DNA from: Amphibalanus amphitrite
Taxonomy: Eukaryota > Arthropoda > Thecostraca > Balanomorpha > Balanidae
NCBI RefSeq assembly: GCF_019059575.1
Contig: NW_024881699.1
Coordinates: 558,001-622,000 of the forward strand
Length of the DNA: 64,000 nucleotides
Direction: 5' to 3'
In this document: piece by piece, positions 2,281-61,925 of the stretch
Position numbering within the stretch: position 1 is the first letter of the stretch
Layout: each line of letters opens with the position of its first letter
Notes under the pieces: model-generated
What the model was told of the DNA's origin: nothing
What the model saw: only the letters and a program-made list of their open reading frames with translations
The model's database searches: none
Made by a program: the position numbers and the translations under genes

Positions 2281-3410
2281 GACTTATTTGTTGCTAGATG
2301 GAACGGTTTGCTATTGGTGGCTGCGACCACACATTAGAGGAACAGTAAGAGTTGCTTAAAGTCGGGACGCCGCGCTATCCAAAAAACCCCATTTCCCACG
2401 TGTCTGGACGATTGCTGTGCGAAATAATAGACACCAATGAGCTCAATCAAGGCCTTAATACTTATCTGTTAAAAACAATGCAGCTCCGCAACTCGATGCA
2501 CGTGTGATATAAATTCTATCGGCTGTCCCAATGCCACGTTTAAGTGTGTCGTAATGTGCATGGCAAGTATGATGATAGGCGCTGTCTTGGGGATAGGACA
2601 TTTTAACAACTGCTTTAGCACAATTGTTAGGTAGAATAATTGGCGCCTTGAGACGCGAAAGTTAACTACACTCGCTCAGCCGCGCGATGGTCCGTGCTCC
2701 CACCCCACCTCACTCCCCACTCCCCAGCCCTCGCCAGCCGCCGCGCCGCGCCGACCCGAGCCATGCATCCGGGCTCGGCCCTCACCGCTGCGCTGACGTC
2801 ACAGGCGGCCCACATCGCCTTCCAACCACCGACCCAGACCGGTGTCATACGGTGTGGGTAGGCTGTGCCGCTTGACAAGTAAGTGAAGCGGCACAGTCTA
2901 CCGGTACCAGGCGGCTGCTGCCAATGCTGAGCCATAGGAACCCGGTGGATAAAGAGTTGTAGAACATCAATCTGCCCCCGAGTGTACCACTGCCGTAGCT
3001 CTAGGACCAGTTTTGTGAAAGTTATTTGCGAAAAACTAAAACCACAGCTCGGGGTCGTTGACCTGACCTCTGACCTCAGGTCACAAAAAACTATTTTTCG
3101 ATTTTTCTCTAGGTCAAACGCTACACAACCGTGCTCGTAATTTGTCTTTATCTCTAAAACTCTATTTTTAGCAGCTATTTGAAGGTTACGTCTGTGAAGC
3201 CGAAGTTTGCCGCGCTGGGGTGTAGAAAAATCGACCCTGTGACGTCATCAATGAAGCAAGGTCCAAATTGTTTACTTCATAAGATGTCAAATTGATGGGA
3301 GAAGAGGTGCTGAAAGCTTCGCTTTTCTATCCCTAAGCATTCAGGAGCTATCGCAAATATTCGCCGGGGGGGGGGGCGAAAAAAAGCCCCCCCGGGTCCG
3401 CGAGGGTTAA

Positions 3411-4481
3411 CCCTCGCCCGTACTGTGTTTTTCCAGCCGCGAACGTATAGGGGGGAAGGGGTCCGTTGGATCCCCCCCCCCTTGCCGTTTCGCCCATGAT
3501 CGAGTTAGAGATTCGCGGAAAAAACAAGCGTGTTGCCCATGACGAGAGGAAGCCGATGATACCCAATTTTAAGGTCCTAGGTCATTGGTTGACCTTCCAG
3601 GTCAGGTCAATGACCCAAAATTCGGGAAAATAGGGACCTGTTAGAACGTCGTAAAATGTGGCTGCTATGGTTTTTTTTTTTTGGGTGCTGATCACGAATA
3701 TCATGCTAGTTTTGATCACAGATGATGTCTTCATGCAGTTAAGCCAGGTCGGGTCAGGTCAAGTCAACCAGTAGGGGTCCTGCCAGGTATTCGTAGTAGG
3801 TGTCAACCGCCTCTGACAGCTTCGTAATATGTTACGAAGGCACCAAAACTACTTCGTAAACGTTCATATGGTTGCTAAATTCGAATTCAGCTCGAAAAAC
3901 TGGCCTAGAACATGTAAAACTCGAAAAAGTGAACCGGGGTCACCAAAGGTCAATGACCTGACCTGACCCTCAGGTGACCTTGACACCCACCCTTATGCAT
4001 GGGACCAACATCATTTCACATGTTTGAACGCTTGAAACCACGAAAGAACTGCAAACGCGCTGCTAATGCAAGCCGACGTTACGCCGAATCACGATTCCGG
4101 CCAAACATGGGCCTCGTTTCATAAAGCGAGTCCGTAACTTACGCCGGTTTTTGGTCTTGTATTGCAAGTGCATGTGAAGCGATGACGATAATTTGAATCG
4201 TTGAGTTTATTTGTCTTGCAAGCAAGAACAGAAGGGAAAAGGGGAAATAAATTTATCGCTTCACATGCACTTGCAATATAAGCCCAAAAACCGGCGTAAG
4301 TTACGGACTCGCTTTATGAAACGAGGCCATGGTCTCGAAAAGTAGGTCTGCAGGTCAAAGGTCATTTTGGTCAGGGTCATGAAATTTTCAGGGTAGGTGT
4401 AAAATTGATTAAAGCGAGGGTACTGAACGTTTCGTTGCGATGGGCTGCTTTTTACGCGAGTTATTCGCGAAAAACCGAGGG
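3411..4481 (+). mobile_element. TTAA-flanked non-autonomous element B, copy 1
   Basis: It starts CCCTCGCCCGTAC just after TTAA (3407-3410), which it shares with the preceding element, and ends CGAGGG before TTAG (4482-4485). The whole sequence, apart from a nested MITE, matches 28992-29865 in reverse orientation; landmarks include GATACCCAATTTTAAGGTCC, the GGTTGACCTGACC block and AACATGTTACGAAG-type palindromes. The interior has many GGTCA/TGACC words. No coding capacity is seen. Confidence 0.75.
4111..4327. mobile_element. 217-bp MITE nested in element B
   Basis: The ends are long inverted repeats: GCCTCGTTTCATAAAGCGAG at the left and its complement at the right, then matching on through GTCCGTAACTTACGCCGG and GCAAGTGCATGTGAAGCGAT. 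CATGG flanks both sides (4106-4110 and 4328-4332). The uninterrupted copy of element B at about 29180 has a single CATG at the equivalent place (...ACCATGTTTGG...), so the insertion is directly visible. Confidence 0.85.
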
Positions 4482-4485
4482 TTAG

Positions 4486-5640
4486 TGTACTTACGTTACA
4501 CTAAACGTTAAGCTAAAGGACTATACGGAAAGTTGCCAAACACTTTTTTGCACCGCGAAACAACAAATAACAAAATGCCAGTAAAATATGTAGGTACTGG
4601 CTCATATCTGTGTGACGGACCTACCTACCGACCTACCGACAAACCTGCGCTTCACCTACACGGTTTCAACGACTTTTTTGATGATAGATCTTTGGTTCGA
4701 AAGTCTCGATTGAATCCTGAATCATTTTTATTAGCTTGGTGGACTGAGTCCGCCAATTGGTATTAACAGTCGCATTCAAAAGTGTTCTGTGAAGTTTCCC
4801 AGCATGATTCGTCGAACGGCGTCATTTCAACCTATATTTTTTTTTAGACGGATGCGCCAGATATCCCAAATATTCAAGAAGAAAGACAGAATTAGTAAAC
4901 TATCGCTTCGCAGAAATATTTCTATTTTGCACTAGCATTGCGTCGCATAAAACAAAGCAGATTGCTTCAATATAGTTTCGCTTCCACGCAAAGACGACAA
5001 CGTTCAGCACTGAACAACTGTTATATAGTCAACGCTACCATTATGTGCAATCAGATTTGATTGCGCAGTGCGCGCAGCGAATCTAAAAGGTAAAATCAAG
5101 CCGTAGTTTGTTAGTACCTACATTGCTACTGCAGGCTGCCGTTGGGAAACAAATGTCTGCATGGTCACTCATATTTTACTGCATACAATGGCGGCTTAGA
5201 TGCATGTGTAATTGTTGGGAGATATGGGCTCATGGACGCTTACTTTTCAATTATGTATGCTTCAAGTAGGCTGGGTGATAACATGGTCGTATGTCATGCA
5301 AGATTATTTTGACAGCGGTGTGAACTATCTGTCTGATAAGCGTGCAGGTAATAGGTTCACTCTGCTTCATTCGTTCCTACTTTCAGCTTAAATGGCATAC
5401 CATATCGGTACCTACGAAGATAGCAATCGCCGAAGCGTGGATTTTATGGTGTTTTGCTTTATAAATCAGTCGAATGCTTTTTAGTTTTAGCTGCAGCTAG
5501 TGGATTTTGATTTTAGCAGCTTCAATGAATTCCCTACATGAATAAATGCATATCGAAATATAATACCTATCGAAACAAAAGCGATGTTGAGCCAGGTAGT
5601 TGAAGTTCACTCTAACCATGCAAAACCGCCCTCTGAACCC
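4486..5640. other. No gene seen (AT-rich spacer)
   Basis: I read this as non-coding spacer. The 77-aa open frame at 4533-4766 has no recognisable content and no splice context. Confidence 0.4.
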
Positions 5641-5668
5641 TATCACTCTTATAAGGCGTCTCGCGCAC

Positions 5669-5674
5669 TATAAA
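5669..5674 (+). promoter_or_regulatory. Candidate TATA box for the PH/actin-fold gene
   Basis: TATAAAGCGC sits at the start of a GC-rich stretch (5655-5780) about 1 kb upstream of the coding ATG, inside otherwise AT-rich sequence. A start site near 5700 would be expected. I cannot define the first exon's donor, so this is a suggestion only. Confidence 0.25.
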
Positions 5675-6185
5675 GCGCCACTTCCGCCGCCGCGCTGCCA
5701 AGCTGTTCGGTAATAGCCGAAAATGGCGCGCCGAAATTGTGCGAACCGTGTGGTCGCCGCCACTTGTCACGGAAAACAGTTTACCCAACACTCAGCGAAA
5801 AGGAGCCTGCGGATATGGAAATCGAGCGGTGTCTCCACGGGTGTCAGAAATGTCCCACGCAGTAGCCGCCGGAGACGTTTATTTAGTAAATTGTGAGACA
5901 ACATTGCCGTGATTTAGCATGGTACCGTGTCTGAAAACTCCAACGATGACTTTCCGGGTTACAAGCCTCTCACTAGTAATCCACACCGAGTATACTGGAC
6001 AAGGGACATGAATATAGCAGAATGCATTCAAAGCAGATCAACAGCGTGATAACATAGCCGTTGGTTCTTGTTTAATTCCAGTTAGGACTATGTTGTCATG
6101 GTACGTGGTTCAGCTGATTTCTTGCTAATTTTAACCACACACTGACTGCAACAAGCAATTAACATTCCTCTCTTCATGTTTACAG

Positions 6186-6679
6186 GACATCACTACACGA
6201 AGCAGTGACGTGAACTGCCAAGGACACTCGACATTGGCATACCTCTCCACCGCAGTCCGATCGCCAGCGTCCGTCATTGCAGCCAGCTTCTGCTGCTGGT
6301 CACCCTTCACCGCCTTCGCATGTGGTCTGCGCGTGTCGTCACGTGGTGATGGCACGTGCCTATGGACACTGTGTCAGTCACAAGCGTGCCTGACACGTCA
6401 CCAGCTGATGCGCCAGCGGAGACCGACAGCGGTGGAGAGCGACCGAACGCCGCGCTGACGGGTGTCTGACACCGAGGTCAGAGGTCAAAGTGCACGCGCT
6501 CGGCCGTTCTGCCGGGCCTGCGGTCGTGCTCGCTAGTGAAAGGGCTCGGGGCGCGCAACCAGGCTGTACTCGTGTTAGTTAATTAACGCCGAGCAAAAGC
6601 CAATGGAAGGGACAGAGCCAGCTAAACTGTGCTGAGGATCGCGCACCAGTTTCCACTACTGACGCCCCTTTCACCAACC
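6186..6679 (+). other. 5' UTR part of the first coding exon
   Basis: A strong acceptor (CCTCTCTTCATGTTTACAG, ending 6185) precedes a GC-rich segment that runs without another obvious acceptor into the large coding exon. An in-frame TAA at 6623-6625 closes the main frame upstream, so coding starts after it. A short upstream ORF (ATG 6603 to TGA 6635, 10 codons) ends 45 bases before the chosen ATG and could dampen translation. Confidence 0.45.
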
Positions 6680-9004
6680 ATGCTCAAGTGGCTGTCCCTT
6701 TCCCAATACGTGGACGGAAGAGGTGACAATCCACCTCAGACAGCGCGCGCCGTCACGACCGAGGCTGGCACGCGGCCGGCACGTGCGATGAAGACCCGAA
6801 CGACCACGCCCGGCGGCTCGCGTCTCCCCTGCTGCCTCTGCTCCTCTGGAGTGACCGGGTCCGGCACTGACGGGTCCGACTGGGACGAACGTGAAGAGCC
6901 GACACCTCTAAGAAGGGAAAACATCCTCGGAACGCTGGAGGCTCGTCTGAAAGGTGCCTGCGTCCGCCGGACTCCCAGTATCGACAGCTGGGCCACGGAG
7001 GTCAGGCGGGGTCGCTCCCCGGTCACGGCGCCGTCCGAGGTCACCGTATCGCCGTCGGAGGTCACGCCTCTGAGCCATGTGGTGAGCTCCGTGAGTCCGG
7101 ACCCGTCCGAGCAGCCCGGCCACGGGCGGCGGCCTGTTCTGGTGCAGCTCCGGCGCCGGCTGGACTCCGGACTGTTCTCCCCCGCTCAGTTCTCTCCCAG
7201 CCTGTCTTCCTCCACTGCCGACACCGCCGACCCCCGGGCGCGCCGCGTTCGCCGCTCGGCGTCGACACTGGGCGAAAGTGAACGCCCACGGCATAAAGCA
7301 CGCAGAACACGCTCATCGGCCGCCGCCGGGAGCTCATTATTGGAGAAAACCCGCGTTCGACACGAACTGCAGCCCACGGCTGCGAACTGCGCTCCGCAGG
7401 GGGTGCCGTGTCTGACACGCTTCCCGGTCGACCCACGCGCTCCCGATTTGTTTGCGCGAGCGATGGGATCGACAGGTAGTGACTCTTTGGGTCGACCTCT
7501 TGGTGAGCTGACAAACGGAGGTGGTGGTGACCTAGTCAAGTCGCAAGATAGCAGGGAGTTTGAGAGCGTTGATCTCGGAAGGCTGAGGACAAGTGATGCC
7601 GTAGACGGACCGAGACATGAATCGATAGGAGAAGGTAACAGTTCTGTTGCTGTAAGGGAGACGGACCGCGAGCGGGCGCTGCGCCGATGGTCGAGTGTGA
7701 TTGCAGAGGACACGGGTGTGACCCGACTCACCGTGTCACTACCCCGGGTCGGACTCCACGGCCGACGGGCGGGGAGGCGGCTGGCGAGGCGACACACTAC
7801 CGAAGTGACACCAACCCACGTCTCCGCAGCCGCCGCTCTCTATCAGCGGCAGGTGCGTGGGACAGATCCTTCTCAGGACAGTTCGCAGAACGTCAGAGAA
7901 GATACCGCGGACCTCTCGACGGACAGCTTGGTGGCGACAGGAGCTTCAGACTCTCTGGGCACAGAAGACTCGAGCCAGCAGTCTTCGGACAGCATGCAAA
8001 GCTCACTAGACGACTGGGACTGGTCAGTCCGACAGTCAGTCCAGAGGAGATCCCGGAGTCTGAGCCCGCCGCGACGGAGGCAGACGACGGTAGCTCTCGG
8101 CGGCCAGACTGCTGTGTTCTGTGACGGAAGGCGTCCGGTCTTCAGCCCGCCGCCGCCGCCGCCTCCACAGCAGCAGCAGCAACAGCAGCAGCAGAAGCAA
8201 CAACTACAACAGCAGCAGCAGCAGCAGCAGTCGACGGCAGCTGCCGGAGACAGCAGCCGACCCAGCAGCCGACAGCTGCGGCGGAGCGCCAGCTGCCTGG
8301 TCACGCCCACTTGGTGTTTAGCTGCCGACGCTAAACGTGTGACCGTCCTGCCGAGGGCGAGCAGCAGCTCTCCATGCCGATCACAGACAGAGACACGGAA
8401 CCACATGGCTGAAGACAGGTCTAACTCAGCAGATTCCGCTGACTCAGCCTCAAATAGAGTAATTCAGAGCGATAACAAGGCTCATGAGTCATCGCAAACA
8501 ATGCACGGCGTGAGAATGTTCCCTGATGCAGCCGCCTCTAATGTAACAGGCTGGCCTCGGCTGCAAAATCGCACGCATGGGGAAAGAACATCAGCAGCTG
8601 AAAGTGAGAAAGAATGCGAGGACTCGTGGGACTCCTGGGATGGCTCACTGACTACGTCTCCCAGTGGCTGGTCGGAATCCAAGCGCGGTACTGACAGGAA
8701 CGAGTCAGCGGTGACATCTTGGGGAGTGACCGAACCGGAGACATCGGTGGACGATAACTCCGAGTGGAGTGCTCTGAGTTACACTCAACTCCAACAGTTG
8801 GGTCGTCACGGTCATCGCCTCAAGGTTCGATATGAAAGACAGACAAACGGCTTAGACGGACTTCAGAGCACGACATCCAGGAGGAGAAACGAACAGCTTC
8901 TTCATGAGAGGCATTATCATCATCAAGGAGACTCTGAAACCGAAGTTCCCCAGGGGCTGCTCGGCGGACTGTCAGAGATCCTGGCATCATCACATCAGGT
9001 TCAG
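6680..9004 (+). CDS. Exon 1: long low-complexity N-terminus with polyP/polyQ and Trp-acidic motifs
   Basis: This exon holds 775 codons. The open frame extends up to TAA 6623, but the first ATG is at 6680 (context CCAACCATGC), which I take as the start; an alternative is ATG 6788. It ends CAG|GTAAGG at 9004, phase 0. The content is Ser/Arg/Thr-rich and largely disordered: P-tract then Q-tract at about 8147-8230, many RRxS-type sites that could be phosphorylated, and repeated acidic-tryptophan clusters (SDWDERE near 6878, DDWDWS near 8010, DSWDSWDG near 8620). No folded domain is recognisable. The antisense polyC/polyG frames across the CAG tract are shadows. Confidence 0.82.
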
Positions 9005-12000
9005 GTAAGGGCTACTCTTTTCTAATGCTTCTTTTGATAATTTGGTTTTGAGCCTAACGTTTGATATCATCAGACAGCCATAAGTAACACGATCCGCTAT
9101 AAATCAACCATTCCGTGGTAAGCCGCACATTTCCGTGAGCACGCACCCTTTCGAACTTCCACTTATATTGTCGTTTGGCTTCCGACCGACTACGACCACC
9201 CTGCGGTCACATGTGTCTTGGCTTGCGTGGAACGGGTGGCTGACCTCTGTCACAGTCCATGCTTTGGTCGCTCCTCGTAACGGAATGTAATAAACACGAA
9301 AGGTCATGGGTGAATGCTTCATCGCCCTCAAGTTAGACGCATGCGTTCATTTTTGACAAATTGAGGCCTATTTCCTCTTCATTGGTTACACACGAGTGGA
9401 GGACCACCTGCTTTAGTGAAATTAAAAGAAAATCCCTCAAACCTCCGACATTTTATATCTGTCGGCCCGCGTATTGAGATGGCGAGTCCAGGCGATGCGA
9501 CGGTGACCGACTCGGAGCGTGTCATCCTGGGTGGCTCGCGGGCGGGCGCCGCTTCAGTGCGCTGTGCCGTGACGAAAACAATGACACAGGGCCACGAGTC
9601 GGTGACCAGGAAGGGCCGTAACAAACCAGCTACATCTTTTAAAAATTATGTGATTGCCGTGATAGCAACCGACTGTGAAAAACAGGCCAGCATCTCAGGA
9701 AAATGTAGCTCGCTCAGTCTGCTTGGGATGACTATGTGCTTTGCTGAAGCGGCAAGAAATAGGCCATTTTTAACTCAAGGGCAGAGCGCCCACTTGGTGA
9801 CACTTTGAATGCGGACCATAAACGTCTGTTTCAGGATCTCACCCATCATCATCCATAATCACATTTATTATGATACCTATTCCATGGGTTGAAAAATTTA
9901 TGCTTTCGTGTCGAGATACAGCAGGCAACCATAGCCGTGCGGCATTCGGCGAGAGACTCCAGCGGCGCACAAAACAGTAGCACCAATACACTGAGGTTGC
10001 GTGGAGAATAGAAGAAGGAGATCATCAGTAACTGAAGTAACTCCCACTAGTCACATCATGTGAGGGGTCTAGTAGTGATCGTGATGTGTAATGACATGAA
10101 GACATCGGTCGAACACCCCTACACCGAAGACACCTACGGAGCTTCAAAAGCACTATTAGAGCTTTTAGGAGGAAGGCAGACTGCGTAAATTGTCCGACAG
10201 AATATTCCCATCCTCAGTTTTTGGATGGCTATTTAACTTGCAGATATAGCCATCGACTTTAAAATTAGCCTTCGCGCGAGCCTTACAATCCCACAATTAG
10301 GCTTCACGTCCTGGAACAGGTCCTTTGGCACGGCGTCACCTGGAGAGCCCATCAGGGGACATCTGTCGCACATGACTCGCCCGGACCTGCCGCGCCCGTC
10401 TCCCACGGGTAGAGCGCCCGGCGCTACCCCGGCGTGGGAGAGGGCCCGGCGGCCGGCCGGCCCGGCGCCGACTGACCCCGCTGACCCCGGCCGACCTTCA
10501 GCGGACCCCGACTGACCTCCGGTGCCCCGCGGCGGTGAGCGGCGGTCTGCCGACAGGGCGCCGGCTCCGTGTCGGCGCGGGTAGTTAGTGAAGGTGTACC
10601 TCCACCCCGGCGGCGGTTGCAGCGCCCACTGGACGTGTCCAATTAGTGAGCCCCGGTCCAGCGCCGGCGGACAGGGGCCAGTGGGGTTACCTTGATCCGG
10701 GCTGTTACGGCCGGTATCCCAGCTGGCCCAGTTGCCGAAATGCTTTGTTGGCAGTTTTTAGGGTTGTTGCATAAGGGGTATTTAGACCCCATGATGAATA
10801 TTGCCACGCACCAATTCAGCCGATGCAATACTTAGGTAAGGATGAAGGCAAGTGTCTCGGGTGTCATGGAGAAACATAAGCCTTTTCATGTCATGATGCC
10901 TACCTACAATTGCTAATCTGTTTGGTGCTTGTATTCTGTGTCGGCATCAGTTTTTCGTGGCTTTAACTAGAAGAGACTAATAGCGGACATTTTTCTGTGA
11001 CGACTGTTATCTAATCTGCAGTAGTGGCCAGCTTCTCTCTGCCCCATCAATCATTTCTGTTGAGTGGAACCACTGAGAAGCTATGGGATGGTGGTTTATG
11101 TTTTTTTTCAAAAGGCTGGCGGTTGTTTTAAGAAATGATTTTGGTAGCTCATCATAAGCTGTCGCATTGTGAAGTGAGCCGTTTCGATATCCTAAAATTA
11201 ATTTGGGAAAGTAACGCCAGTGGCTGATATGTAGGTAGGTATTTCGCTGTAAAATTATAAGTGTTATGAAGTGCGTTTTTCGGTCTTTTCTAGGCAGTCA
11301 TGTCTCGAAGCGTTCCGGTGATATTCCATTTTAATGTTACGGTAAGAATGGTAGTACATACCGTATGCACTCCAAATTGATCCGACTGAAGAAATGCAGA
11401 CGCTAGATGCGACTGTCTAATGCTTCAGCGCTCCACTAGATGGTGGCACAGTCGGGCGCCGCGGCAGGTGGCGCTCTGGTAGTGTGTCTGGTAGTGAGAG
11501 CTGGGGGTGTGGACGGAACGGACAGCAACCTCACGTGTCTATAGCTCCCTCGAACTGTGACCACGGAACCCAGCGCCATCCAGGGGCTGCCTAATCTACT
11601 GAAGGGTCCTCTTAGCTACCGATCGTCCGTTGAGCTACCGAGGGGTCTGCTGAGCTACCCTGACCTGAGCGCGTGGCAGGGGCCACCTGAGGTAACAAGG
11701 GAACCTTAGAGCAAACGAGGGTCATCAGCTGAGCTACCGAGCAGTCATTGAGTGCCTTGAGTTGCAGGCCCCTAAGCTGCCGAGGGGCCCATGAGCTCCC
11801 CCTCCCCCTCTCCAGCTACCACGAGGTTCCTGAGTTAGGTACTGAGTAATTCCCTGAGCTACCGATGTATACCCTTGATAGCGTGGCAGTCAGGCTCTCT
11901 GAGCGCCTGGCATGGACCTCTGAATGCGTTAGGGATCCTTCCGATCACGTAACAGATACCATCTGAGCACTGGAAATACATAAGTATAGGAACGTGAAGA

Positions 12001-15000
12001 AGGAGGAGGGGATGAGAGGCCATTGCCTTCTACCGTACATCGAAAATATGCGCTAAAACCATTCATTTGTAAGCATTATTAGCCGACCATCAATGCCTGT
12101 TTCACCTCTGAGCTCTCTTTTGCACAATTACTTTCCTCCACGAATAGATCAATAGAAATTAAAATTCCCCCGGTTTATTGGCGGCGCGTGTCATCCGAAA
12201 ATTCATCGCCACCTTTCGGCACAATGTTTGGTGAGGCAATTTCTCTTTTCCAGATGTGTGCTGTTGCACAATGCACATTTACCTGCTATTGTTGATTGTT
12301 GAAACCATAGATAACATGAATCATGCTATATATGTTGAAACACATGATGATCGCATCATTGCATACTTGCATACGAATTAAAGTCTATGTTTGTTTTAAG
12401 ACGACAAACAAATGGGCGAAAGACGGGCGAATGTATAAATATGCCAACTCTTAGTAAGCACATCGAAATTCATTCTGGTTGTGTGAATCTGTCCCAGACC
12501 TAAGCAGTTATCGCAAAAGCATTCAAATATGTCTTGACTAGCCGGCCGGCCGGCGTGGCGGCAGACATGGTCAGACCGGTAATGGCTTCATCGGTCGGAC
12601 GTTTTTTCCTTCCACTTTTCTTTCCTCCTGCGGCTTGCTCTAGCCCACAAAACCACCAGGCACCCACTCCAATGCAGATGATGTTCCCCTTTGCCGCATG
12701 GCCAGCATATAAATGCTTATTTCGTGCGAGGCCATGGGCCTCGCACAAAATGGCTTTATCGGGCGGCCCGCTGCGCGGGATTGTGTTATGACGTCACGCG
12801 CCCGACCTCGCGGGTCGGAGCGCGGCAGACTGCCTATTCGGTGACCGGTCACAGTGGTGGACGGAGCGCGCGCATCGGAGCAGGACCGACCTCGCGTCCG
12901 ACGAGCAAAGGTGAGAGCCAGAGTGGTGTTTTAATGGCTTGAAGCAATTACCGGCTCATCATAGCGAGGGAAATGATTTGTGCGCGACACGCGGTATGTT
13001 ATAATAGATATTCCTGTTCGGTCAATTTTTCGTCCCTCCTAGGTCACCCAAGCTTTCATTCAACCAATTTTTGTGTATGCCGTGGCCATGGCTAGCCCAT
13101 ACTGTTTTCTGTTCTGTTTAGCTGTTTTCCCATGACCACGGATATTGGCTGTCGGAATAGCGGTGTACGGATTAATATCATGAGTTTTTTTTCCACCGCC
13201 TCGAATGGTATTACATAGCGGAACTGTAAAACGAAAAGTTTCGATTTCCTAATATCAGTTTTATTTTGCCATAGTTTTATGCAGTTTCATGAAATGCTGC
13301 TGTGTGCTGGTATCAGCTCACGCTACAGAGCTGCTAATCCAATTCACACTCCATTGTTTAATGATATATTGTTTTCACAAACGGTGCATGGTCCATGGAC
13401 CATGCGCACTTCCCGCCAGACGCCCGGGCTGTTTGCCCTCGGGCGCATCGGCTGATAGCCACCGCCCAGACATCGCCGGAGGGCCCAGCCGGCCCAGGCC
13501 CAGCGGTGGGCCGGCGGCTGGTGTGGGGCGGGTGGCGCAGAGGCCAGGCGGTTAGGCCACAGCGTGACCATATCCATTGAATGTTTAAAGCAATTGCGAT
13601 GCTATTAGCAATAATTTTACAGTAATAGGTAATCTTGATAATTGTTAATATGTGATAATGATACCCATATATACCAGAACATATTCATATATGAAATTGA
13701 AGTACGATACCTAATATCGTTGGCAATTCTCTGCCGATAGTAGCTTCGCTTCTACGGTAATGTCTTTGGGATTTTACCATGACCGTTGTTCAATAACTGT
13801 GCCGTCTGGACTTAGTCTATATCCAGGCAGGTGCGTCACTTCTACTATAATGCCTGTGGGATTTTAACCACACTGTTGTTCACTATGATAGTGTCGTCTG
13901 GCATTGGTCTGTACTGACCGGTGTTTCACTTCTACGGTAATGGCCGGGGATTTTGCCCAGACTGGTGTTCACGATAATAGTGTCGTCTGGCATTGGTATA
14001 TCCCAACTGGCCCTTCACCTCTCCGATGATGGTATTACCTTTTACCCAGACTGTTGTTCACTATGATAGTGTCGTCTGGCATTGGTCTGTACTTACCGGT
14101 GTTTCACTTCTACGGTAATGGCCGGGGATTTTGCCCAGACTGTTGTTCACGATAATAGTGTCGTCTGGCATTGGTATATCCCATCTGGCCCTTCACCTCT
14201 CCGATGATGGTATTACATTTTACCCAGACTGTTGTTCACTATGATAGTGTCATCTGGCATTGGTCTGTACTGACCGGTGTTTCACTTCTACGGTAATAGC
14301 CGGGGATTTTGCCCAGACTGGTGTTCACGATCTGGCATTGGTATATCCCAACTGGCCCTTCACCTCTCCGATGATGGTATTACATTTTACCCAGACTGTT
14401 GTTCACTATGATAGTGTCGTCTGGCATTGGTCTGTACTGACCGGTGTTTCACTTCTACGGTAATAGCCGGGGATTTTGCCCAGACTGGTGTTCACGATAA
14501 TAGTGTCGTCTGGCATTGGTATATCCCAACTGGCCCTTCACCTCTCCGATGATGGTATTACATTTTACCCAGACTGTTGTTCACTATGATAGTGTCGTCT
14601 GGCATTTGTCTGTACTGACCGGTGTTTCACTTCTACGGTAATGGCCGGGGATTTTGCCCAGACTGTTGTTCATGATAATAGTGTCGTCTGGCATTGGTAT
14701 ATCCCAACTGGCCCTTCACCTCTCCGATGATGGTATTACATTTTACCCAGACTGTTGTTCACTATGATAGTGTCGTCTGGCATTGGTCTGTACTGACCGG
14801 TGTTACACTTCTACGGTAATGGCCGAGGATTTTGCCCAGACTGTTGTTCACGATAATAGTGTCGTCTGGCATTGGTATATCCCACTGGCCCTTCACCTCT
14901 CCGATCATGGTATTACATTTTTACCCAGACTGTTGTTCACTATACTAGTGTCGTCTGGCATTTGTACGTACCGAGTGTGCTTCCCCTATATGGGGGGTTG

Positions 15001-18000
15001 GCTGGTGCTTTGCTTTTACCCGGACTGTTGTACACTAAGATAGTGTCGTCTGTGGTTGTGCGCCCAGTCGGTATTCACCGTCGCGACGAGGTCTGAGACA
15101 CCCAGTTGCTCACTCCGGATTTAATATCGGTGGCACCTCACCCAGGCTGGCGGTGCCCACATTGGTGATACCGCTTATTTCAATGATCCGATCTTTGCGG
15201 CCAAGTATTAACGTAAACATTCTTCCTTACAACAATGCTATTTTCAGGAGCATGCTACTGGTGCTCGGAGACAGTTACGCGCACTGGGCGCGATATCTGT
15301 GCGACCTGGACTCTGACGTCCAGGCCATTGGCTGAAGAGGTGCGCGGCTTAGCAACGAGGACTTTCGACGCTGGGCGATCAGAACAGTGCACCTGAGGCA
15401 GCCTTGGGACGTCCTGGTCAATGTCGGAGGCAATGATGTGGCCAGCCCACAGTTCAGCCCTAGGCTTCTCAGCCTGTATTTCGAGGACCTGGTCCTCGGC
15501 ATAGCTGCCGCCGGTGCCGAGACGGTGCATATCCTGCCCATACCTCCGCGGGTGGCAGTGCGTGCCGGCAGTGTGTCCGCGTCGATTTGTCGACGGATTG
15601 TAGCGGCGATAACAACACCGGCGACATCGAATGGACTGTTATGTTCTGGCCACTGGGACAATTCGGGCTATCGGCTAGCTAACTAAGCTTTCTTCAGTGC
15701 TAGTCGCTGAATACGTCAATTATGGGTATTTCCCCGGTTGGCGTCGCTGTTTCGGCCGTGCACTGCCTAGCCTTTAGCATGTTGCCCCTCCGGCAGGCTG
15801 CCGACGTTTCGGTCTGACGGCATGTGTCTCTGACCGTAGCGCAGACTTCAGTGCGCTGTATGACTTGCGCCGTCTTAATTTGACCGTTCGGCCCGTGAGC
15901 CGGTCGTACGGCTATGCCGCCATTGCCTTCTTATCTGAGGAAGGGCGGTTTATGTTCTGGCCACTGGGACAATACGGGGCTATCGGCTAGCCAACTAAGC
16001 TTTCGTCAGTGCTAGTCGCTGAATACGTCAATTATGGGTATTTCCCCGGTTGGCGTCGCTGTTTCGGCCGTGCACTGCCTAGCCTTTAGCATGTTGCCCC
16101 TCCGGCCGGCTGCCGACGTTTCGGTCTGACGGCATGTGTCGTCGTAGCGCAGGCTTCAGTGCGCTGTCTGCTAGTTTTTCTATTTGCCCGCCACCTCCTG
16201 GGTGGCCTCGCTCCTGTTATCGATACTGCACACATCAGCGTTCGCTGTCTGCTTAATATTGCATATTTGTCTCCAATCCTTCTTTGGTCTATTTCGCCGC
16301 TTATCTCAGCAACGTTTAGCCTCATTATAAAGGGAACGGCCGAGGCGACATCTGAGATCCGTCCTCTCCTTACTTTTCAGCCCTGTGCTTCTCGTGCTCG
16401 CGGCTAGCTTTGCCCATTGAGTTCGTCCCCAGGGACATGTCACTCCACTTTTGAGCACATCGTAAAGAGGCCTAAGGATATTAATAGGCGTGTGAATTGC
16501 GCCACAATCGCTGTCTCATTCCTGAGCAGTTTTGGTGATCGGTACTCTGGACTAGTGTTGGACTAGTGTTGCCCTTCGTTAGCGGTTGCCTTAACCCCTG
16601 GCAGCCCAAAAAAAAAAAAAATAATAATGTAATTTGGCTATCGGCATCGATATCAAATCGAAGACCTTATTGACAGATAATAAAGTATGCAATGCATAAA
16701 AAGATCAAAGTAAATGAATAAACCCTTTTTAAGCATCAGTTCGCTGTTAGTACTGCGGGTTTTTGAAGGCTATGTACATCTTCGAAATCATCCATTGCTT
16801 AGCAGTTCGGCGTCTTTTTGTCGCCAGAACGTGTTTGCCTAAGTGTCCTCTGCCGTTGATTAATATAACTGCATATTGCATGTTTCACAAATCTTCAAAT
16901 GAAAGTAACAAATTTTTGGGTGTTTGGACTGGTATTACCTTTCTGTTACGTGGGCAAAAGCCATCGCCACTTGCTATCCGCCTCTGTTTTCTTGTTAGGA
17001 GGGTATTTTCTATAGATGGCCCTGATCGTCCCGCCGCCCTTATATGCTAACTTGCCGCTGCCAGTTTTTACGATGACCTTGTAACACTTGGTAGTCGTTG
17101 CCTATCCCATTTGCCCGGCAGACGTTCTCATCGCAATGCGTGAGCTCCCATGGGCGCTGTTTTTTTCATGGGTAGGGATGGCGTCCACCCGTCAAGGGAC
17201 GGCTGGCGTCGCCTGCAAGCCCTCATTAACCATATCGCTGCCATATAACTGTGGATACTAGCGGCCCCCTGCCTGTATCCCTAGGGCTCCCAGGTCTGCT
17301 TGTCTCGTACCGTAGTCCGTAAAACGGACTGTTGTTTTTGGTTTCATCGTTCAGTTTGGCGGATAAAATCTCAGTATCAGTGCACAGTTAACTTGCACGT
17401 TTCTCTGTTATATCTGAAGTATACAGCTCATCGCGATGTGGCATGCGAGGCTCTTTGCTTGCCTTCTCAGCATAAATGTGTGCTCATTACGTCTGTTCCT
17501 TTTCATACGCCGATCATGCCGAGCACGAGGCTGTGGACCCACGCCGGAACGGCCCAGCGAGCACGGAGCTGGAGGCGGACGTCTCCGGGCGGCAGTGGCA
17601 CGCTTCGCAACCCGTGCGCCGAGGCAGCCCTCTCCGCCTGGCAGCCAGCGGCGACGATTGTTCACAAAGCAGCGGCCCAGGCACGAGAGGCCGCTCGAAC
17701 GTCACCAGCACCCCGGCTCGCCGACACTTGCCAGCAACACCCGCGCGCCGACATTCCGGACCCCGGCCGTCGGGCTGCCTCCTGCGCAGATCACAGCAGC
17801 CCGTCGGTCCTCACTTCCGGCTACAACTTCTGGGACACCTTCACCTCGCCTGGCAGCGGGAATCACGTTAGCTCGCCTGCTGCCACAGGCGGCCCCAGCG
17901 CAGCCCCAGCCGTCACGCTCGACGCAGTTCAGCTGTGTAGCTCGCTAAGAAACCCGTGCTGGAGGCCATACCGTCCTCTAGCACGGCCTGCCCGGAGACG

Positions 18001-21000
18001 TCCGAATGCGGCGTCACCTTAGCTCTTCTGGACCTGAACTGCAGCGACCACCGGCACGATTAATGTCGTTTTGGTCGCACGTCCGCAGGTTTGTCATTTC
18101 TCCATTTGCGAGATACCGACACGGCCCGTTGGCCGCGGTATCACTCTATAGTTGCGAGATGCCGTAACGACCCGTTCGGTCGCGGTATCACTCTAGTTGT
18201 GAGATACCATCACAGCCCATTGGCCGCGGTATCGGCCTTAGATTTAGATAAGTCAGGTTACCTACCGTGCTTTCAAACTGGCAGTAAGGGAATGCATCAC
18301 CTAGTCATGTGCTCACGCTTAGCTCATCCCACTTTTCTTATCATGTTTTTATCGCAGTATATGTTTTATCGTGTGTAACGTGGCATTATGTGTATGCACA
18401 ACTTGTCGATATTTTAGCGTCACTTTGCTTTTACACATGTATGACGGGAGACTCGAATAGCCGCGGTGGGATGGTCTCAACAATACACGAAACGAAACGA
18501 AGGTTCACCAGTAGGTAGTGCGGGATGCCGACACGACCCGTTCGGTCGCGGTGTCATTCGTTGCGAGATACCGACACGGCCCATTGGCCTGGGTATTGCC
18601 CTTATGGGTAAGTCAGGTTCACCAGTAGGCAGTATTTTTTTTCTTCTAATTCCTCTCTGAATAACAGACAGTCTGCATGTGCCACGCATTTCTATGTCAT
18701 TGATTCACTTTTGGAAAAGCACCCACGTCCGGCTGTCGGCTGGCTGCCCACAGTTATCACAGTGTTGCCGCCGTTGGCAACACCGCCGACGGGCAGAGCT
18801 CTCGACACGGCTGCTGACAGTATTCCAGTAGCCGCGGAGTTTTTTTTCCGACTCTGGGTGCTTTCCGACACGTCGCAATGCCAGCCTGTAACATGTGTGA
18901 TTCCCCTTTTCCGCATGTAGCAGCGTGCTTTGTGTTCCTATATTTGTCAGCGTTTTCGACGCACTGTGCTGCGGTTTATTTTGTGCTCCTTCGGTGTTTC
19001 GGTGTGGGGGGCTGGGCGTTGCACCTCACCAACGTCGGATCACGTATCGGTAAAAATGTGACGTGTGTACACAGAAAATACAGTCCCGTTTCCACATACC
19101 AGCCTCTGTTGTTATGGAAGCAGCGAGTCGCAGGATAAATGCTTATTTCGTGCGAGGCCATGGGCCTCGCACAAAATGGCTTTATCGGGCGGCCCGCTGC
19201 GCGGGATTGTGTTATGACGTCACGCGCCCGACCTCGCGGGTCGGAGCGCGGCAGACTGCCTATTCGGTGACCGGTCACAGTGGTGGACGGAGCGCGCGCA
19301 TCCCCACCGCCACCCCTGCTGCCTCCTACGTATTATCTGTGCGTGTGAAAATCGGTGAAAATGGTACTGTACAATGGTATGACTCGTGACTCGTGAATGC
19401 TGTTTATAAAACCCGGTTTAGGAATGTATGTACCTACTTTGTTTTCATTGATAGCAGTTCACTACACCTTGTCTGGAAGGTTGACATAAGTTCTTATGGA
19501 CTGTATTTTGGGCGTTGCACCTCACCAACGTCAGATCACGTATCGGTAAAAATGTGACGTGTGTACACAGAAAATACAGTCCCGTTTCCACATACCAGCC
19601 TCTGTTGTTATGGAAGCAGCGAGTCGCAGGATAAATAAGGACAGGGGAGCGCCGAGTCCGTTTTTACCTATACCTACAATGAGTTGGATATGTAAAATAT
19701 GCAAGGGGATATTAGCTAACAAGAAAACGTCGTATCGGTCCATCGCTGATCGGCAGGATCTGTTTGGCTTTGCGCATGGGCTTCGGCTCAATTTCTAGCA
19801 TATAAAGGAATGGGAGCCTCCTCAAATTCCAACAGAAGCTCACTTTTCGTCATGTTTTTCCACACCGCTATACTATAGAACATTTGAGAATTTCCAATGA
19901 ATTTCATGTCTGCGCGCTCTCAATCATTCCCTCTAAATTCACGGAAGCTCGCGTATGCGCATACTCGAGTATCCAATCCATACTAACCCCTGTCGTATAA
20001 TAACAATGAAGCGTCCTCAGATACCCGATCTACCCGTCATGGTTGAACAATGCTGACCCTAGATATTCTACTGATACCCTGAGCCGTGCTGCTCTGGCCC
20101 CGAGTCAGTCAGGTACCGTTGTCGCTCGCCTGGTTCAACGCGCCGAGCTAATTCAACCCGACACCTTTCATACCAAGGTTTTAGTATGCTTCCGGACCAG
20201 ACCCGTCGGCCGGACGAGTTTCTCCCAAGTGTCATCACATGCAGATGACAGCTGACCCCCCCCCCCCCGGCTGTCGGTGACCCACCTCGCTCGCCGGCCC
20301 GATAGTCGAACAAACCAGCCCGGAGCGGCCGGTCCGTCTGCATTGCAGAGTGAGTCACGTGACCGGCCTGGTCGGTCGGAGCCGGAGCTGACGGCCGGTC
20401 ACGTGACCGACCGGATCACCTGGGCCGGCCCGGCGCAGCCGCGGAGCGGCTGGCAGGCAGACGGACAGTGGGTCGGGTGGCTGGCCCGTGAGCTGCGGTG
20501 ACCGGGTGAGGTGCGGTGACGGCGCGGTGACAATTCGGTGACATGTCAGTGACACAGTGACAGCCGACAGGACCTGTGATGAGTTACTGACGAAACTCGG
20601 TGACCTGGAAGCGATTAGTGCCGGAGGTGGTGATTCGGTGATGCTGAACCGGTGTGGTGACAAAGAGAAGTGGTGTGTTGAATAAGAACTCGTAATATGG
20701 ACAGAGATGTATCGACTGCATAGTGATCAGCTTAAAACAAATCAACAAACGACACTCAACAAATCAACATTGTGGAATACCAAACAACTGGACAAGCAAG
20801 AACAACAGGATAAGCAGGGACAAGCTTCGCGTGTTTGTGTCAAGCCGTGGCTCAGTGTCGCAGTGCATCCTATAAACAGGACAATGGACCTCATTAGCGT
20901 CGGCAAATGCAGCTTTGTTCCCGGTAAATATCATCGGTGAGCCTGGACACTAAAAATCAAGCACGAAGTGGCCTAGAATAGCCAACCGAGCGCTGATTTG

Positions 21001-45000: not shown

Positions 45001-48000
45001 GCAAACACAAGAGACGGTCGCAGGTATGAACAGCATGACAAGTTTGTAGTTTATTTCCTCATAGCGGTATTGCTTTGTTAGAGCAGTGATAAACACATAT
45101 CCATGCACGATGTATGTCGCGTGAAAATTTAAGTGTCAGATTAATAGGTAAATGTACGAAGTTCTTATTTATGGGTCACAAGCAAATTATGCTAGCCTTT
45201 CGACAAACATATTTAGCTTATATTTCTGGATTTTTTTTCAGACGAGCGATGACAGCGACAGTATGAAGAGCGAGCAGACGCTATCAGCGAGCACCGATCC
45301 GCCGGAGAGCCGCTCGTCGCCCCTGGAGGGTCTCCTGCCGTCCGTGAAGGCGCTCAAGAGCAAGTTCGAGCGGTCGGCCGGGAACCCGTCGGGGTCGATC
45401 GGTCGGCGCGCCGGCCGGCCCCGTCCCGCCGGCGACCCGCTGGCCCTGGACGTGCTGTCGGCCGCCCTCGGGGAGCTCAGTCGTTCCGGCGGCACCCATC
45501 GCCGACCGCTGGAGACCGTGTTCGATAAGTTCCCGCTGGTGGACGAACGTACTGTGAAGCCGGGAATCGCTACCGACGTCTGGGACCCGGTAAGTCAAGG
45601 GCCATTGGTTGGACGCTGTATTAAATGACTGTTACGATAGAGTTCGAGATATCTCTCCTGATCGTATAGAATGTTTTCAGGCAACGTCATTCAAACTGAT
45701 TGATCAAACATGCCGACTGCAGGTGGGGTGTTGTTCTTTACGTTTCTAACAAAGTCGTCCTTCTTCCACCTGGCTTCTCAACCAGAGCGAGCTGCTGAAG
45801 GTGCTGTATGAGGTGCCGCAGCCGAGCGGCCGCTCCCACTCCAAGCTGCGCTTCACCAACATCGAGGGCTGGCTGGAGAAGCTGCCGTCCGGCATGACGA
45901 AGGCCACCTTCTGGAACGCATGGAAACGACGCTACTTCAAGGCCAAGGACGGCTTCCTCTACTACTATCAGGTTTGAACGGCTACTAGACTGTTGACTGT
46001 TATGAATTTAAACATTTTCGCTTGGGATTCGTATGTTTTTTATTAGATTTATCAGGATTAAGGAAAATAAAATATTGATTCAGACAAAAATGCTGGATAT
46101 CAGACAACTGACGCCGCAATAAAATAAACGACAGATCAGCAATAGGAAGGCACCACCAGGAACACTGATCAACAGTCAACACCATATCAGCCACAAATGA
46201 TGACATGACCTTCTCAGCAGAGGCTCAGGCGTGCGCTCAGTTTAAGTTTATTTTATTTTATTTTCAGAACAACGTCACGGAGAAGCCGAGTCTGGTGCTG
46301 CGGCTGATGGGAGGCCGAGTCGAGCTCATGGACTGCTCCTCGTTCGGCACCAACGACGGGGTAAGACCCGGACTGCAATGCATTTTACAGTTTACTTTTA
46401 GAACACATAACTAGCATCTGTTTTAATTATCTGATGGTAGTACAAAAAAATCAGCATTATTTCGGATCTCTCCAGGCAGTGCTAATCTCCCGAGAAAATG
46501 CTGATTTGATGTTTTTTCTCGTTCCAGGTACCGCAAACCGTATTCAGCTTGTACGACGGGGTAAGTGAAATACATCCATACCGATGTCTATCACAAAGCA
46601 GCCGAAACAGTTGGACATGTGCAGAGATGAATTAAAAACTTAATTCCCTATGTGAAAAAAGAGTACGATTACAATGCGAGGAATTCTGTAGCCGTGCACC
46701 CGTTCCTTTCCTATCGCTACTCTGTGTGACATATCTAACCATCCCATCTCTGCACAGGTGGACCGTTTCATGGTGGTGCGCTGCGCCCGCGGGAAGGAGG
46801 CCGACCGTTGGCACCGCGCCCTGCTCACCCACACCACCGACGACGCCAGCGCCACCTACGTCCAGCCCGTGCGGGTGCCGCCGAACCCCGTGTCGGCCCA
46901 GCGGAGGGTCATCATCGACCTTGGCAGCACGGCCGTCCGGGCGGGCCTGCTACTGGACCAGCGTGAGTGGGAAACGAACCGGGCTGTGATTGATGTGCGC
47001 TATTTAGGACTTATTTGCATAAATAAACATAATCTGTCACGTATTGTGGTAATCTATTGTCCAATTAAATAATTAATGTGACCAGCCGGGTTCGCTCATC
47101 ATACTCCCGTCTGGCCTCTTAGCGTAAGCTCTGTCTCACCTTGCTCTCTGCATCTCTCTCCCGCAGCCACGCTGCCACAGCTGTTCTTCCCGGCTGCCGT
47201 GGTGAGCTCCGGTGACGGCCGGCCGTTGGCGGTGGGCTCAGCGGCGCTGCGGCCCGCGGCGCGCGCTGCCGGCCGCCTCTGGTTCCCAGTCCGCTCGGCG
47301 GCGGCCGGCCGGAGGAGGCTGGACGTCCCGGCCGCCGCGGCGCTGGTCCACCTCGCCCTGCGGCGGCTGCAGCTCTCCGGGGAGGTCACCATGGTGCTCA
47401 GCGTGCCGCACGGACTGAGGTCGGCAGTGACCGCTCAGCTGGCGCCGCTGCTGCTGGAGGAGCTCGGTGTGCGCGCCCTGGCGGTGGTGGAACAGAGCGA
47501 GGCGGCGCTGGCGGCGTACGGCGTCACCACCGGTCTGGTGGTCAACGTGGGGGAGAGCACTGACGTGGTGCCCATCATAGACGGTGAGTTATCAAGCGGG
47601 AGTCAGGAGGCATTGCTAAAACTTATAGGGACTACAATACTTGCGTAAGGCGACCAGGTACGCGGAAAAAGAAAAGAAATAAAAATATTACGCTATTCTA
47701 ATAAAAAATAATTTAATTTGACGAGGTGCGTAAGAGATATTTTCATCTGCGACAATGATCCCATTCTATTCCAATACCGTTATATAGCCTCAAATCTGTC
47801 CCCAGGCGCGGTCGTTCCCGCCGGCGTGACTCGTCTCCCTCACGGCGGCTCGGCTCTGCGGGACCAGCTGCGGCCGTTCCTCCTGCAGAGGAGGCGCTCT
47901 CTCACCGGCTCGGTCGAGTCCCTGCTGTTGCGACACGCCTTCGAGCGGCTCTGTTTCGTCTCGGAGCGGTACGAGGAGGACGTGCGTCGGTGTGCGGCCA

Positions 48001-53398: not shown

Positions 53399-54423
53399 GA
53401 ACGGTATGGAAATCAATATGAAGCTGTATAGGTACCAATATCTGACCGGTCACGAGTCAAGTAATTAACATAAGGTTACTTGTACTACTTACTTGAGTCA
53501 CTAACATATTTTTTTATTAAAAAAGATATGTCCTATGCGCTGTAGTCTGGGATTCTCCGTTTTGTATAGTTCGGTAATGCACCTCTCCTGTCAGCATCCC
53601 CAACCACTTTTTTGGGCTATATATAACCATTTTAAAGCGAAATGACAGGACTTTTGGTACCCACGCGTGCCAATTTGCCGTCGGCCATCATGCTTACAAA
53701 TCCAGTCTAGAGTATAAAAATTTGCTTTTAATAAGGGTGCATGGGCTCAGAATTAAACGAGAGATAACCATCCTAAAAAGTTAGATTAAAGTCATCAATA
53801 AATGTTTTTTTTCGGTGTAGGAGACGTGCATTACTGAACGTTGTGGTTTTGTTTCCTCTTGAAGTGCACCCGATCTATTTTTCCCGAGTGTTCCGATCTA
53901 CCGCGATATTTGCGTGGCCGAGACAAAACTGATTTTTGCAGAACTATTTGCTTTCTGGGGCGTGTATTGCGGTCCACCTTTTTACGCAAACTACCAGTTG
54001 AAGACGTTTTAATCCTAAAGTTACTTCATAACACATTTTATGCTCAATAGACAAATGGAAATTTTAAGAGGAATAGAACGGCGCCGAACAATTCCTTCGT
54101 TAAATTAAAAACCGTAACTAAATAACTATGCATAATTTATGCTAATGAAATTGACAAAATGTTGTAAATTATGAAGGAAGGTCACCTATCCATTTCATCA
54201 AATATTATTTATGCTTATTTCATTTTTTTTTCGCCATCAGTTGTCTTCATCAGTCCGTCAAAAATCAAATCATGCTCGTCTGAGCTGGTAACATAGCGGT
54301 GCTCTTTTTTTCGACCCGCCAGCCCGCAATGAGCGGGTATACAAAGCCGGCATGGGTTTAAGCGGGTTGCATCACCAGTACCTACCCTTTTTGGCACTTT
54401 TAGGGAAACACCCTGTAGACTTA
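53399..54423. other. Intergenic: no gene recognised
   Basis: AT-rich. The 69-codon + frame at 53841-54050 has no recognisable content. Confidence 0.4.
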
Positions 54424-60400: not shown

Positions 60401-61925
60401 TTTTTGTCGTCATATCTCGTCAACAGCTAGTCTGCTGCCGTCACATCTCGTCACCAGTCAGTCTTCTGTCGTCACATTTCGTCAATAGCCAGCCTACTAG
60501 CCTTCCGTCGTCACATCTCGTCACCATCTAGTATATATTAGTCTACTGTCGTTACATCTCGTCACCAGCCAGTCTTCTGTCGTCACATTTCGTCACCAGC
60601 CAGCCTACTAGCCTTCCGTCGTCACATCTCGTCATCATCTAGTATATATTAGTCTACTGTCGTTACATCTCGTCACCAGCCAGTCTTCTAGTCTTCTGTC
60701 GTGACATGTCGTCACCACCCAGTCTTCTGTCGTCGCCAGCCAGCCTACTAGACTTCTGCCGTCACATCTCGTCTCGGTCTAGTCTTTTGTCGTCACATCC
60801 CGTCACCAGCCATTCTGCTGGTCTTTGGTCATCGCATCTCGTCACCACCCAGTCCACTAGTCTTCTATCGTCACATCTCGTCACCGTCTAGTCTTCTCTA
60901 GTGACATCTCGTCACCAGCTAGTTTTTTGTCATCACGTCTCGTCACCAGCCAGTCTTCTGTCGCCACATCTTGTCACCAGCCAGTCTATTTGTTTTTTGT
61001 CGTCACATTGCGTCACCAGCCAGTCATACTGGTGTTCTGTCTTGTCGTTGCATATCGTCACCGTCTACTCTTCTGTCGTTGCATCTCGTTACCAGCCAGT
61101 CTGCTTATCTTTGTCGTCACATCTCGTCACCAGCAAGTCTACTATCGTAGCCTTTCATCACCATCCAGTACATCTCGTCATCAGCAAGACACTTTCGTCC
61201 CAACTCGTCAGCAGCCAGCCTTCTAGTCTTCCGTCGTCTTATCTCGTCACCATCCAGGACAGCTCGTCACCTGCCAGTCATCTCTCGTCACCTGGTAGTC
61301 TTCTGTTATAATTTTTTCGTCAACAGACAGTCTTCTATCCTTCTGTCGTCATATCTCGTCACCACCTATCCTGCTGTCGTCACATCTCGTTCCCATCCAG
61401 TGTACTAGTTTTGTCGTCACACCGCGTCGCCAGCTGGTCTTCTTTCGTCACGTCTCGTCATTAGCCATTCTACCAGTCCTGTGCTGTCTCGTCTCGTCAC
61501 CAGCCAGTAAACGGTCGTCACATCTTGTCACCAGCCAGTCTACTGTCGTCACATCTCGTCACCAGCTAGTCTACTAGTCTGCTGTTGTCTCATCTGCTCA
61601 CCAACTAGTCTTTTGTCGTCACATCTTATGGCCATCTATCTCATCTTTTCTCCAGCCAATCTACTCATGTTCTTCGTCACATGATCGACACCAACCAGTC
61701 TACTGTCGTATCATCTCGTCACTAGCAGTCTATTTGTCCTATGTCTTCACATCTCGCCACAGCTCGCTACTAACTGGTCTTTAATCGCCACGTCTCGTTA
61801 CCAGCTAGCCTTCTGTGGTCACATCTCGTCTTTGTTTGTTTTAAGTCGTCACACCTCGCCACTAGCAAGTCTCCTGTCGTCATATCACTTCACCAGCTAG
61901 TCCTCTATCTTGTCTCAATGTCTCG
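54424..61925 (+). repeat. 7.5-kb minisatellite, 31/39-bp units with higher-order organisation
   Basis: The basic unit is TCGTCACATCTCGTCACC followed by AGCTAGTCTTCTG (31 bp); a longer form has AGCCAGTCTACTAGTCTTCTG (39 bp). It recurs over 150 times by rough estimate from the length, with substitutions everywhere. A marker variant (TAGTCTTCAATCGTCACATC) recurs near 55370, 55950, 57126, 58168, 58731 and 59462, which indicates higher-order blocks of some 500-700 bp in the middle of the array. The 31-bp period shifts frame each unit, so the many His/Ser/Val-rich open frames are artefacts. Confidence 0.95.

What the first reader, a model, noticed from the sequence alone, without database searches (positions are those of the whole stretch)
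12709..19636. Recent split-direct-repeat element (A1 - interior - B1A2 - B2) with a shared ATAAAT core at three junctions
Sequence shows two identical 168-bp A repeats and two nearly identical 128-bp B repeats in the order expected for Ngaro/PAT-like tyrosine-recombinase retrotransposons, and the same six bases at the left end, the internal joint and the right end. The inside has an SGNH domain, reported in some Ngaro-type elements, but no visible reverse transcriptase or recombinase. It would be a non-autonomous, recently moved member, which is seldom described in arthropods.
Basis: partly seen in the sequence, partly recalled or inferred. Interest (0 to 1): 0.82.

Follow-up and report, generated by a model that had tools for sequence, protein, structure and literature searches.

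The report
Gene-stripped Ngaro retrotransposon with empty site
This is a recently inserted, gene-stripped jumping element of the rare Ngaro kind in a barnacle-like genome that also holds a coding relative with the same ends, and the same genome contains a matching stretch without the insertion, which shows letter by letter how the element joined the chromosome.

Summary
The main interpretation holds. Two siblings with the same repeats lie in this genome: C489, with open SGNH, gag-like, reverse transcriptase and recombinase frames, and C275, with split gag and recombinase frames. Six paralogous empty sites for the C489 copy read GTAAAT; its left end carries GTAAAT, its right end ATAAAT. So the left core is the target's and the right core the element's, as expected when a recombinase joins a circle to a similar genomic core. 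The window copy has no detectable RT or recombinase; its middle 3.2 kb is a foreign block related to C220 that splits a broken SGNH frame. Two additions: SGNH lies upstream of gag, not after the recombinase as in Xenopus; and the joint folds into a 34-bp hairpin kept in a divergent family. Filed as a non-autonomous Ngaro-like element, a new variant of a known kind.

The parts
12709..12876 (+). A1 repeat, left end of the element
   Evidence: identical to A2; 98% to A repeats of siblings on C489 and C275
12709..12714 (+). left core ATAAAT (the target's copy by analogy with the C489 copy; here target and element letters are the same)
   Evidence: siblings read GTAAAT and CTATAT here
12877..15251 (+). 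5' non-coding part with the 89-bp (178-bp dimer) tandem array at about 13745-15040, shared with siblings
15252..15596 (+). N-terminal part of the SGNH hydrolase frame, one in-frame TGA at 15333-15335
   Evidence: 93% identical over 115 residues to the open SGNH frame of the C489 sibling
15597..18775 (+). foreign block in the place of the rest of SGNH plus gag, RT and recombinase of the siblings
   Evidence: C489 and C275 share a different 4-kb segment here; pieces of window 15856-18759 match C220 at 93-97%
15639..16170 (+). about 220-bp direct duplication (15639-15862 and 15950-16170) inside the foreign block
17147..17245 (+). C-terminal SGNH fragment (DGVHPS block) of another lineage
   Evidence: 79% over 33 columns to A. 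amphitrite P0017, 73% over 26 to the C489 sibling; also in C220
18260..18501 (.). nested dispersed repeat of about 242 bp with AGGTT on both sides, absent from C220 at the same place
19013..19140 (+). B1 repeat
19120..19200 (+). hairpin spanning the B1|A2 joint (34 bp)
   Evidence: z -7.6, 0 of 200 shuffles
19135..19302 (+). A2 repeat; 19135-19140 is the joint core ATAAAT shared with B1
19303..19508 (+). 206-bp single-copy spacer between A2 and B2, kept in both siblings (96-97%)
19509..19636 (+). B2 repeat, right end; right core ATAAAT 19631-19636

Best explanation
A non-autonomous Ngaro-like retrotransposon of 6,928 bp (12709-19636), made of the ends of one Ngaro-SGNH family around a foreign core, inserted recently. 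Working model: its transcript is copied by the RT/RNase H of a coding sibling. The internal B1|A2 joint is the template for the circle junction B-ATAAAT-A. The sibling's tyrosine recombinase then joins the circle to a genomic hexamer resembling ATAAAT, so that the left end keeps the target's core, the right end carries the element's, and no extra bases are made. Shown: the repeat architecture, siblings with the same ends, a sibling coding for RT and recombinase, empty sites, and the origin of the left core at the C489 locus. Inferred: the RNA and circle intermediates, mobilisation in trans, and a role for the joint hairpin.
For: Architecture and identity of repeats. Three copies with different flanks share A1, joint and B2. 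C489 copy: RVT_1 E 4e-9, Phage_integrase E 5e-6 (26.8 bits, just under Pfam's 27.1 cut-off), Lipase_GDSL_2 E 4e-7 (31.3 bits, cut-off 32.9); its four frames have no stop inside. Its recombinase has 31 homologs at E <= 1e-10 among the 8,000 candidates scored, best 63%. Two reported contig lengths (6,677 and 9,303 bases) each go with both an SGNH and a recombinase homolog (P0011/P0068, P0023/P0061; that each pair shares one contig is inferred from length only). Empty site for the window copy, on a contig collinear on both sides. Empty GTAAAT site in 6 of 6 informative paralogs for C489, out of 8 loci returned. In C489, A1 and A2 differ only at core position 1. Left cores match ATAAAT at 15 of 18 letters, which random flank hexamers reach in 0 of 200,000 draws.
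Against: No RNA or circle was seen. The chimeric interior could have formed after insertion, in which case this copy never moved as a non-autonomous element. The window copy's own core is uninformative because target and element letters are the same. No empty site was obtained for the C275 copy. One divergent right end, on C863, reads ATAAAA instead of ATAAAT. C158 may be a paralog rather than the other haplotype (88-96% identity). No RNase H match was listed for C489. RT phylogeny was not done.
Confidence: 0.86

Rival explanations
1. A coding-type Ngaro copy inserted here and was later rearranged in place: its SGNH-to-recombinase part was replaced by a C220-like block through gene conversion or ectopic recombination, so this copy never moved as a non-autonomous element.
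For: The block boundaries share a similar short motif (CAACACCGGCGAC at 15613, CAACACCGCCGAC at 18778, read). C220 carries no A or B match of this family. Only one chimeric copy is known: the search with the middle finds all 3,179 bases at the window alone (40 of 896 candidates scored).
Against: The window copy's shared blocks differ from C489 and C275 by about 4-8%, while those two differ from each other by 1.1-4.5% in theirs, so the window lineage was probably separate before insertion. Its A and B pairs have 1 difference in 296 compared positions, which leaves little time after insertion.
Confidence: 0.2
2. PAT- or DIRS-type element rather than Ngaro.
For: PAT elements have the same split direct repeats (PMC4157794, passages).
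Against: No methyltransferase match was listed in six frames of the C489 sibling, the domain that separates DIRS/PAT from Ngaro; an SGNH frame is reported for amphibian Ngaro (PMC9210276, passages).
Confidence: 0.07
3. Two unrelated dispersed repeats that happen to lie in A-B-A-B order.
For: One A-like stretch (C1639) occurs without a B match in the 18 kb fetched around it.
Against: All 6 B matches lie in three elements with the same order, and filled and empty sites have exact boundaries.
Confidence: 0.01

Closest known systems
Ngaro-like element DIRS-53_XT of Xenopus tropicalis (PMC9210276, passages read)
   Same: A1 at the 5' end and B1, A2, B2 at the 3' end, of similar size (A 236, B 152 there; A 168, B 128 here); RT/RNase H, recombinase and SGNH frames
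   Different: SGNH follows the recombinase in Xenopus; in this family it precedes gag. The window copy has no RT or recombinase and a foreign core. A joint hairpin is not mentioned in the passages read.
Ngaro elements of Cafeteria burkhardae (PMC8547959, passages read)
   Same: A1-[ORFs]-B1A2B2; isolated AB repeats in the genome
   Different: No SGNH (the word hydrolase does not occur in that text); here one unit from A start to B end (1,025 bp, C333) was seen
SIRE, the short non-autonomous relative of VIPER in Trypanosoma cruzi (PMC6681497, passages read)
   Same: A non-autonomous form of a recombinase retrotransposon with split direct repeats
   Different: SIRE corresponds to the A2-B2 region only; here all four repeats remain around a 6-kb interior without RT or recombinase
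DIRS1-like elements (PMC3266345, passages read)
   Same: Model of a circle junction recombining with a matching short genomic sequence, no target duplication
   Different: Inverted repeats and a 3-bp junction there; split direct repeats and a 6-letter core here

Membership tests
Ngaro-like retrotransposon | Split direct repeats A1 - interior - B1 A2 - B2 | tested here: met
   window and two siblings
Ngaro-like retrotransposon | Tyrosine recombinase | tested here: met
   in the C489 sibling (PF00589 E 5e-6, 26.8 bits against 27.1; many homologs carry precomputed PF00589); not found in the window copy itself
Ngaro-like retrotransposon | Reverse transcriptase with RNase H | tested here: inconclusive
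   RT met in C489 (PF00078 E 4e-9); no Pfam RNase H match listed; neither found in the window copy
Ngaro-like retrotransposon | No DIRS-type methyltransferase | tested here: met
   six frames of C489 and of the window element, none listed
Ngaro-like retrotransposon | RT/recombinase phylogeny within Ngaro | not tested
   no named Ngaro reference proteins were in hand
PAT-like (DIRS) retrotransposon | Methyltransferase domain | tested here: not met
DIRS1-like retrotransposon | Inverted terminal repeats with internal complementary region | tested here: not met
   A and B are direct repeats; the one inverted pair of 20 or more letters reported for 11500-21000 is a palindrome at 19943-19974, outside the element

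The most novel reading that the evidence does not exclude
The B|A joint is a structured recombination site: a hairpin of about 34 bp that is complete only when B is joined to A (in the internal joint and, by inference, in the circle), pairs the core with an inverted TTTAT, and is kept with paired changes in a family about 72% identical. The recombinase, or the reverse-transcription step that makes the circle junction, would recognise this fold, in the manner of folded single-stranded attC sites of integrons (recalled comparison), and only joined circles would integrate.
Probability: 0.2. Interest if true: 0.82.

Novelty: new variant of a known kind. Interest (0 to 1): 0.62.

Why it matters
How split-direct-repeat retrotransposons join their targets rests largely on models (passages). 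Here filled and empty sites in one genome show which core letters come from the target and which from the element, and a gene-less chimera beside a coding relative makes mobilisation in trans testable. The SGNH-first gene order equals the Xenopus order if the circle is opened on the other side of SGNH, which suggests that the junction can move relative to the genes. The joint hairpin gives a testable signal for circle formation or recombinase choice.

Tried and rejected
SGNH relatives in viral contigs (122 stretches matched a pattern, none encodes a relative) and in bacterial and archaeal genomes (with P0003: 69 stretches, none). Exact 18-letter B-end and A-start patterns in viral contigs: 0 and 0. 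Rfam (gathering thresholds) and tRNA scans of the window: nothing. PDB sequence search with the C489 recombinase: 0 at E <= 0.01. C182 as an empty site for the C275 copy: rejected, only the right flank matches. C863 and C333 as coding relatives: no SGNH, gag, RT or recombinase match at E <= 1e-3 in the stretches fetched. The 45-bp repeats at 18100-18600 as structured RNA: weak (z -1.6, -0.1, -0.8). The joint hairpin is not unique by length or energy: 5 of 3,196 windows of 86 letters (step 20) fold into a single hairpin of 33 bp or more, the joint among them, and 12 of 7,990 windows (step 8, many overlapping) fold more stably than -51.6.
Full report
Observation. At the joint the two homologies overlap by those six letters. 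A spacer of 206 letters lies between A2 and B2.

Inside the element. An 89-bp tandem array (dimer 178 bp) fills about 13745-15040. An SGNH frame starts at 15252 and has one in-frame stop. It matches P0017 up to residue 122 and stops at 15596; its last block reappears at 17147-17245. No RT, RNase H, recombinase or methyltransferase match was listed in six frames (asked up to E 5, though HMMER's filters drop most matches above about 0.1).

Siblings in the same genome. The window is G000:C202:558001-622000 of an 807.6-Mb assembly with 2,644 contigs. The A repeat has 11 matches (11 of 11 candidates scored): two in the window, a pair on C489, a pair on C275, one single on C1639 (98% over 164 letters, no B match in the 18 kb fetched) and four divergent or partial ones. 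The B repeat has 6 matches (6 of 6 candidates), all in the three elements. The tool calls such counts lower bounds. The C489 copy (L009 1019-8112, 7,094 bp) has SGNH 2876-3397, a gag-like frame with a Cys-rich end (by eye) 3452-4675, RT 4452-6275 and recombinase 6173-7180, without stops inside. Pfam: Lipase_GDSL_2 E 4e-7 (31.3 bits, cut-off 32.9), RVT_1 E 4e-9, Phage_integrase E 5e-6 (26.8 bits, cut-off 27.1); no RNase H match was listed. The C275 copy (L010, L011) has gag and recombinase split between frames and an insertion of about 4.4 kb in B1.

Chimeric interior. Window 12710-15596 and 18776-19636 align to C489 at 92.6-96.0% in the main blocks (C275 91.9-96.3%), but 15597-18775 does not; C489 and C275 share a different 4-kb segment there, inside a block of 98.4% identity. 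Searching the genome with 15597-18775 (40 of 896 candidates scored, 57 matches) shows that pieces from 15856 to 18759 match C220 at 93-97%, with two further stretches present only in C220, and that 18260-18501 is a dispersed repeat of about 242 bp with AGGTT on both sides, missing from C220. C220 has the same SGNH end block but no A or B match of this family. The window copy is thus a chimera of two lineages. Whether they were joined before or after insertion is not proved. The near-identity of its A and B pairs (1 difference in 296), against 4-8% divergence of the shared blocks from the siblings (which differ from each other by 1.1-4.5%), favours before.

Empty sites. The 300 letters right of the element have one other match, on C158, at 89% (2 of 2 candidates). 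On that contig the left and right flanks are contiguous and read CAGCAT-ATAAAT-AAGGAC, and blocks of 88-96% identity run collinear from window 4648 to 26729, with gaps. This fits an uncollapsed second haplotype without the element, but a paralog is not excluded. The right flank of the C489 copy lies in a repeat (2,310 candidates, 40 scored). Of 8 loci returned, one is the filled site itself (L020), one covers only a later part (L025), and the other 6 read GTAAAT once between both flanks. In the filled site the left core is GTAAAT and the right core ATAAAT. C275 has CTATAT at the left and ATAAAT at the right, with no empty site in hand. A divergent unit on C333 runs from an A start with C before TAAAT to a B end with ATAAAT, 1,025 bp apart; the divergent right end on C863 reads ATAAAA, an exception or a later change. 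The three family left cores match ATAAAT at 6, 5 and 4 of 6 letters; random hexamers from the 500 letters of left flank reach 15 of 18 in 0 of 200,000 draws. This is what is expected when a recombinase joins a circle carrying ATAAAT to a similar target. With one informative empty site, whether the left end always keeps the target's core is open.

Joint hairpin. The RNA fold of 19115-19200 pairs 34 bp across the joint (-51.6 kcal/mol, z -7.6, 0 of 200 dinucleotide shuffles). At the left end the same stem is partial (-39.3) and at the right end absent (-17.2). Both siblings keep it. In C863, whose B1|A2 region is 72% identical, the joint again folds into one long hairpin (z -5.3 against 100 mononucleotide shuffles; the B2 ends of C863 and C333 give z 0.4 and 1.8). 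On the four-row alignment 98.5% of cells pair (39-47% when slid; 95.5% on average when 3' letters are shuffled, 5 of 500 shuffles reaching the observed value), with 3 of 33 pairs changed on both sides. These are two families only, so the covariation is suggestive, not proof. Single hairpins of 33 bp or more occur in 5 of 3,196 windows, and 12 of 7,990 windows fold more stably.

Host. Of 42 SGNH homologs, 3 bear an organism name, the barnacle Amphibalanus amphitrite; of 31 recombinase homologs 2 do, the same species.

Known or new. Nine papers were seen as passages only (PMC9210276, PMC8547959, PMC6681497, PMC4157794, PMC3783388, PMC3266345, PMC6327564, PMC5408684, PMC12440569). Ngaro elements, split direct repeats, SGNH in amphibian Ngaro, isolated AB units and a non-autonomous relative (SIRE) are in print. 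Searches: Ngaro with crustacean and retrotransposon gave 10 papers, of which I opened 3 (passages) and saw 7 as listings; Ngaro with barnacle gave one paper, with a single Ngaro mention in its introduction; Ngaro with empty site gave one paper on Camelus, not opened. None of what I saw describes such an element in barnacles or its empty site; this covers only the open-licence library and, for the unopened papers, only titles and starts of abstracts. SGNH upstream of gag differs from the Xenopus order, where it follows the recombinase. On a circle the two orders are the same, with the B|A junction on the other side of SGNH.

Noticed in passing
window 54416-61611: About 7 kb of degenerate tandem array with a 31-bp unit (consensus) and strong strand asymmetry (GC skew -0.29 to -0.37).
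   Followed up: no
window 13745-15040: 89-bp tandem array in the 5' part of the element; the siblings carry it too, aligned in several registers.
   Followed up: partly
window 18100-18240 and 18519-18600: 45-bp repeats each able to form a small hairpin (GATACCG..CGGTATC), also present in C220.
   Followed up: partly
L010 8480 to L011 2987 (C275): An insertion of about 4.4 kb inside B1 of the C275 sibling.
   Followed up: no
C333:348163-349187: Unit of 1,025 bp from an A-like start to a B-like end of a divergent family, possibly an isolated A-B unit.
   Followed up: partly
window 47082-47645: Frame that by eye resembles an actin-related protein exon (recalled motif, not searched).
   Followed up: no
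C294, C221, C407, C233, C107: Five loci 68-80% identical to the longer pieces of the foreign block that they match, probably a further related family.
   Followed up: no
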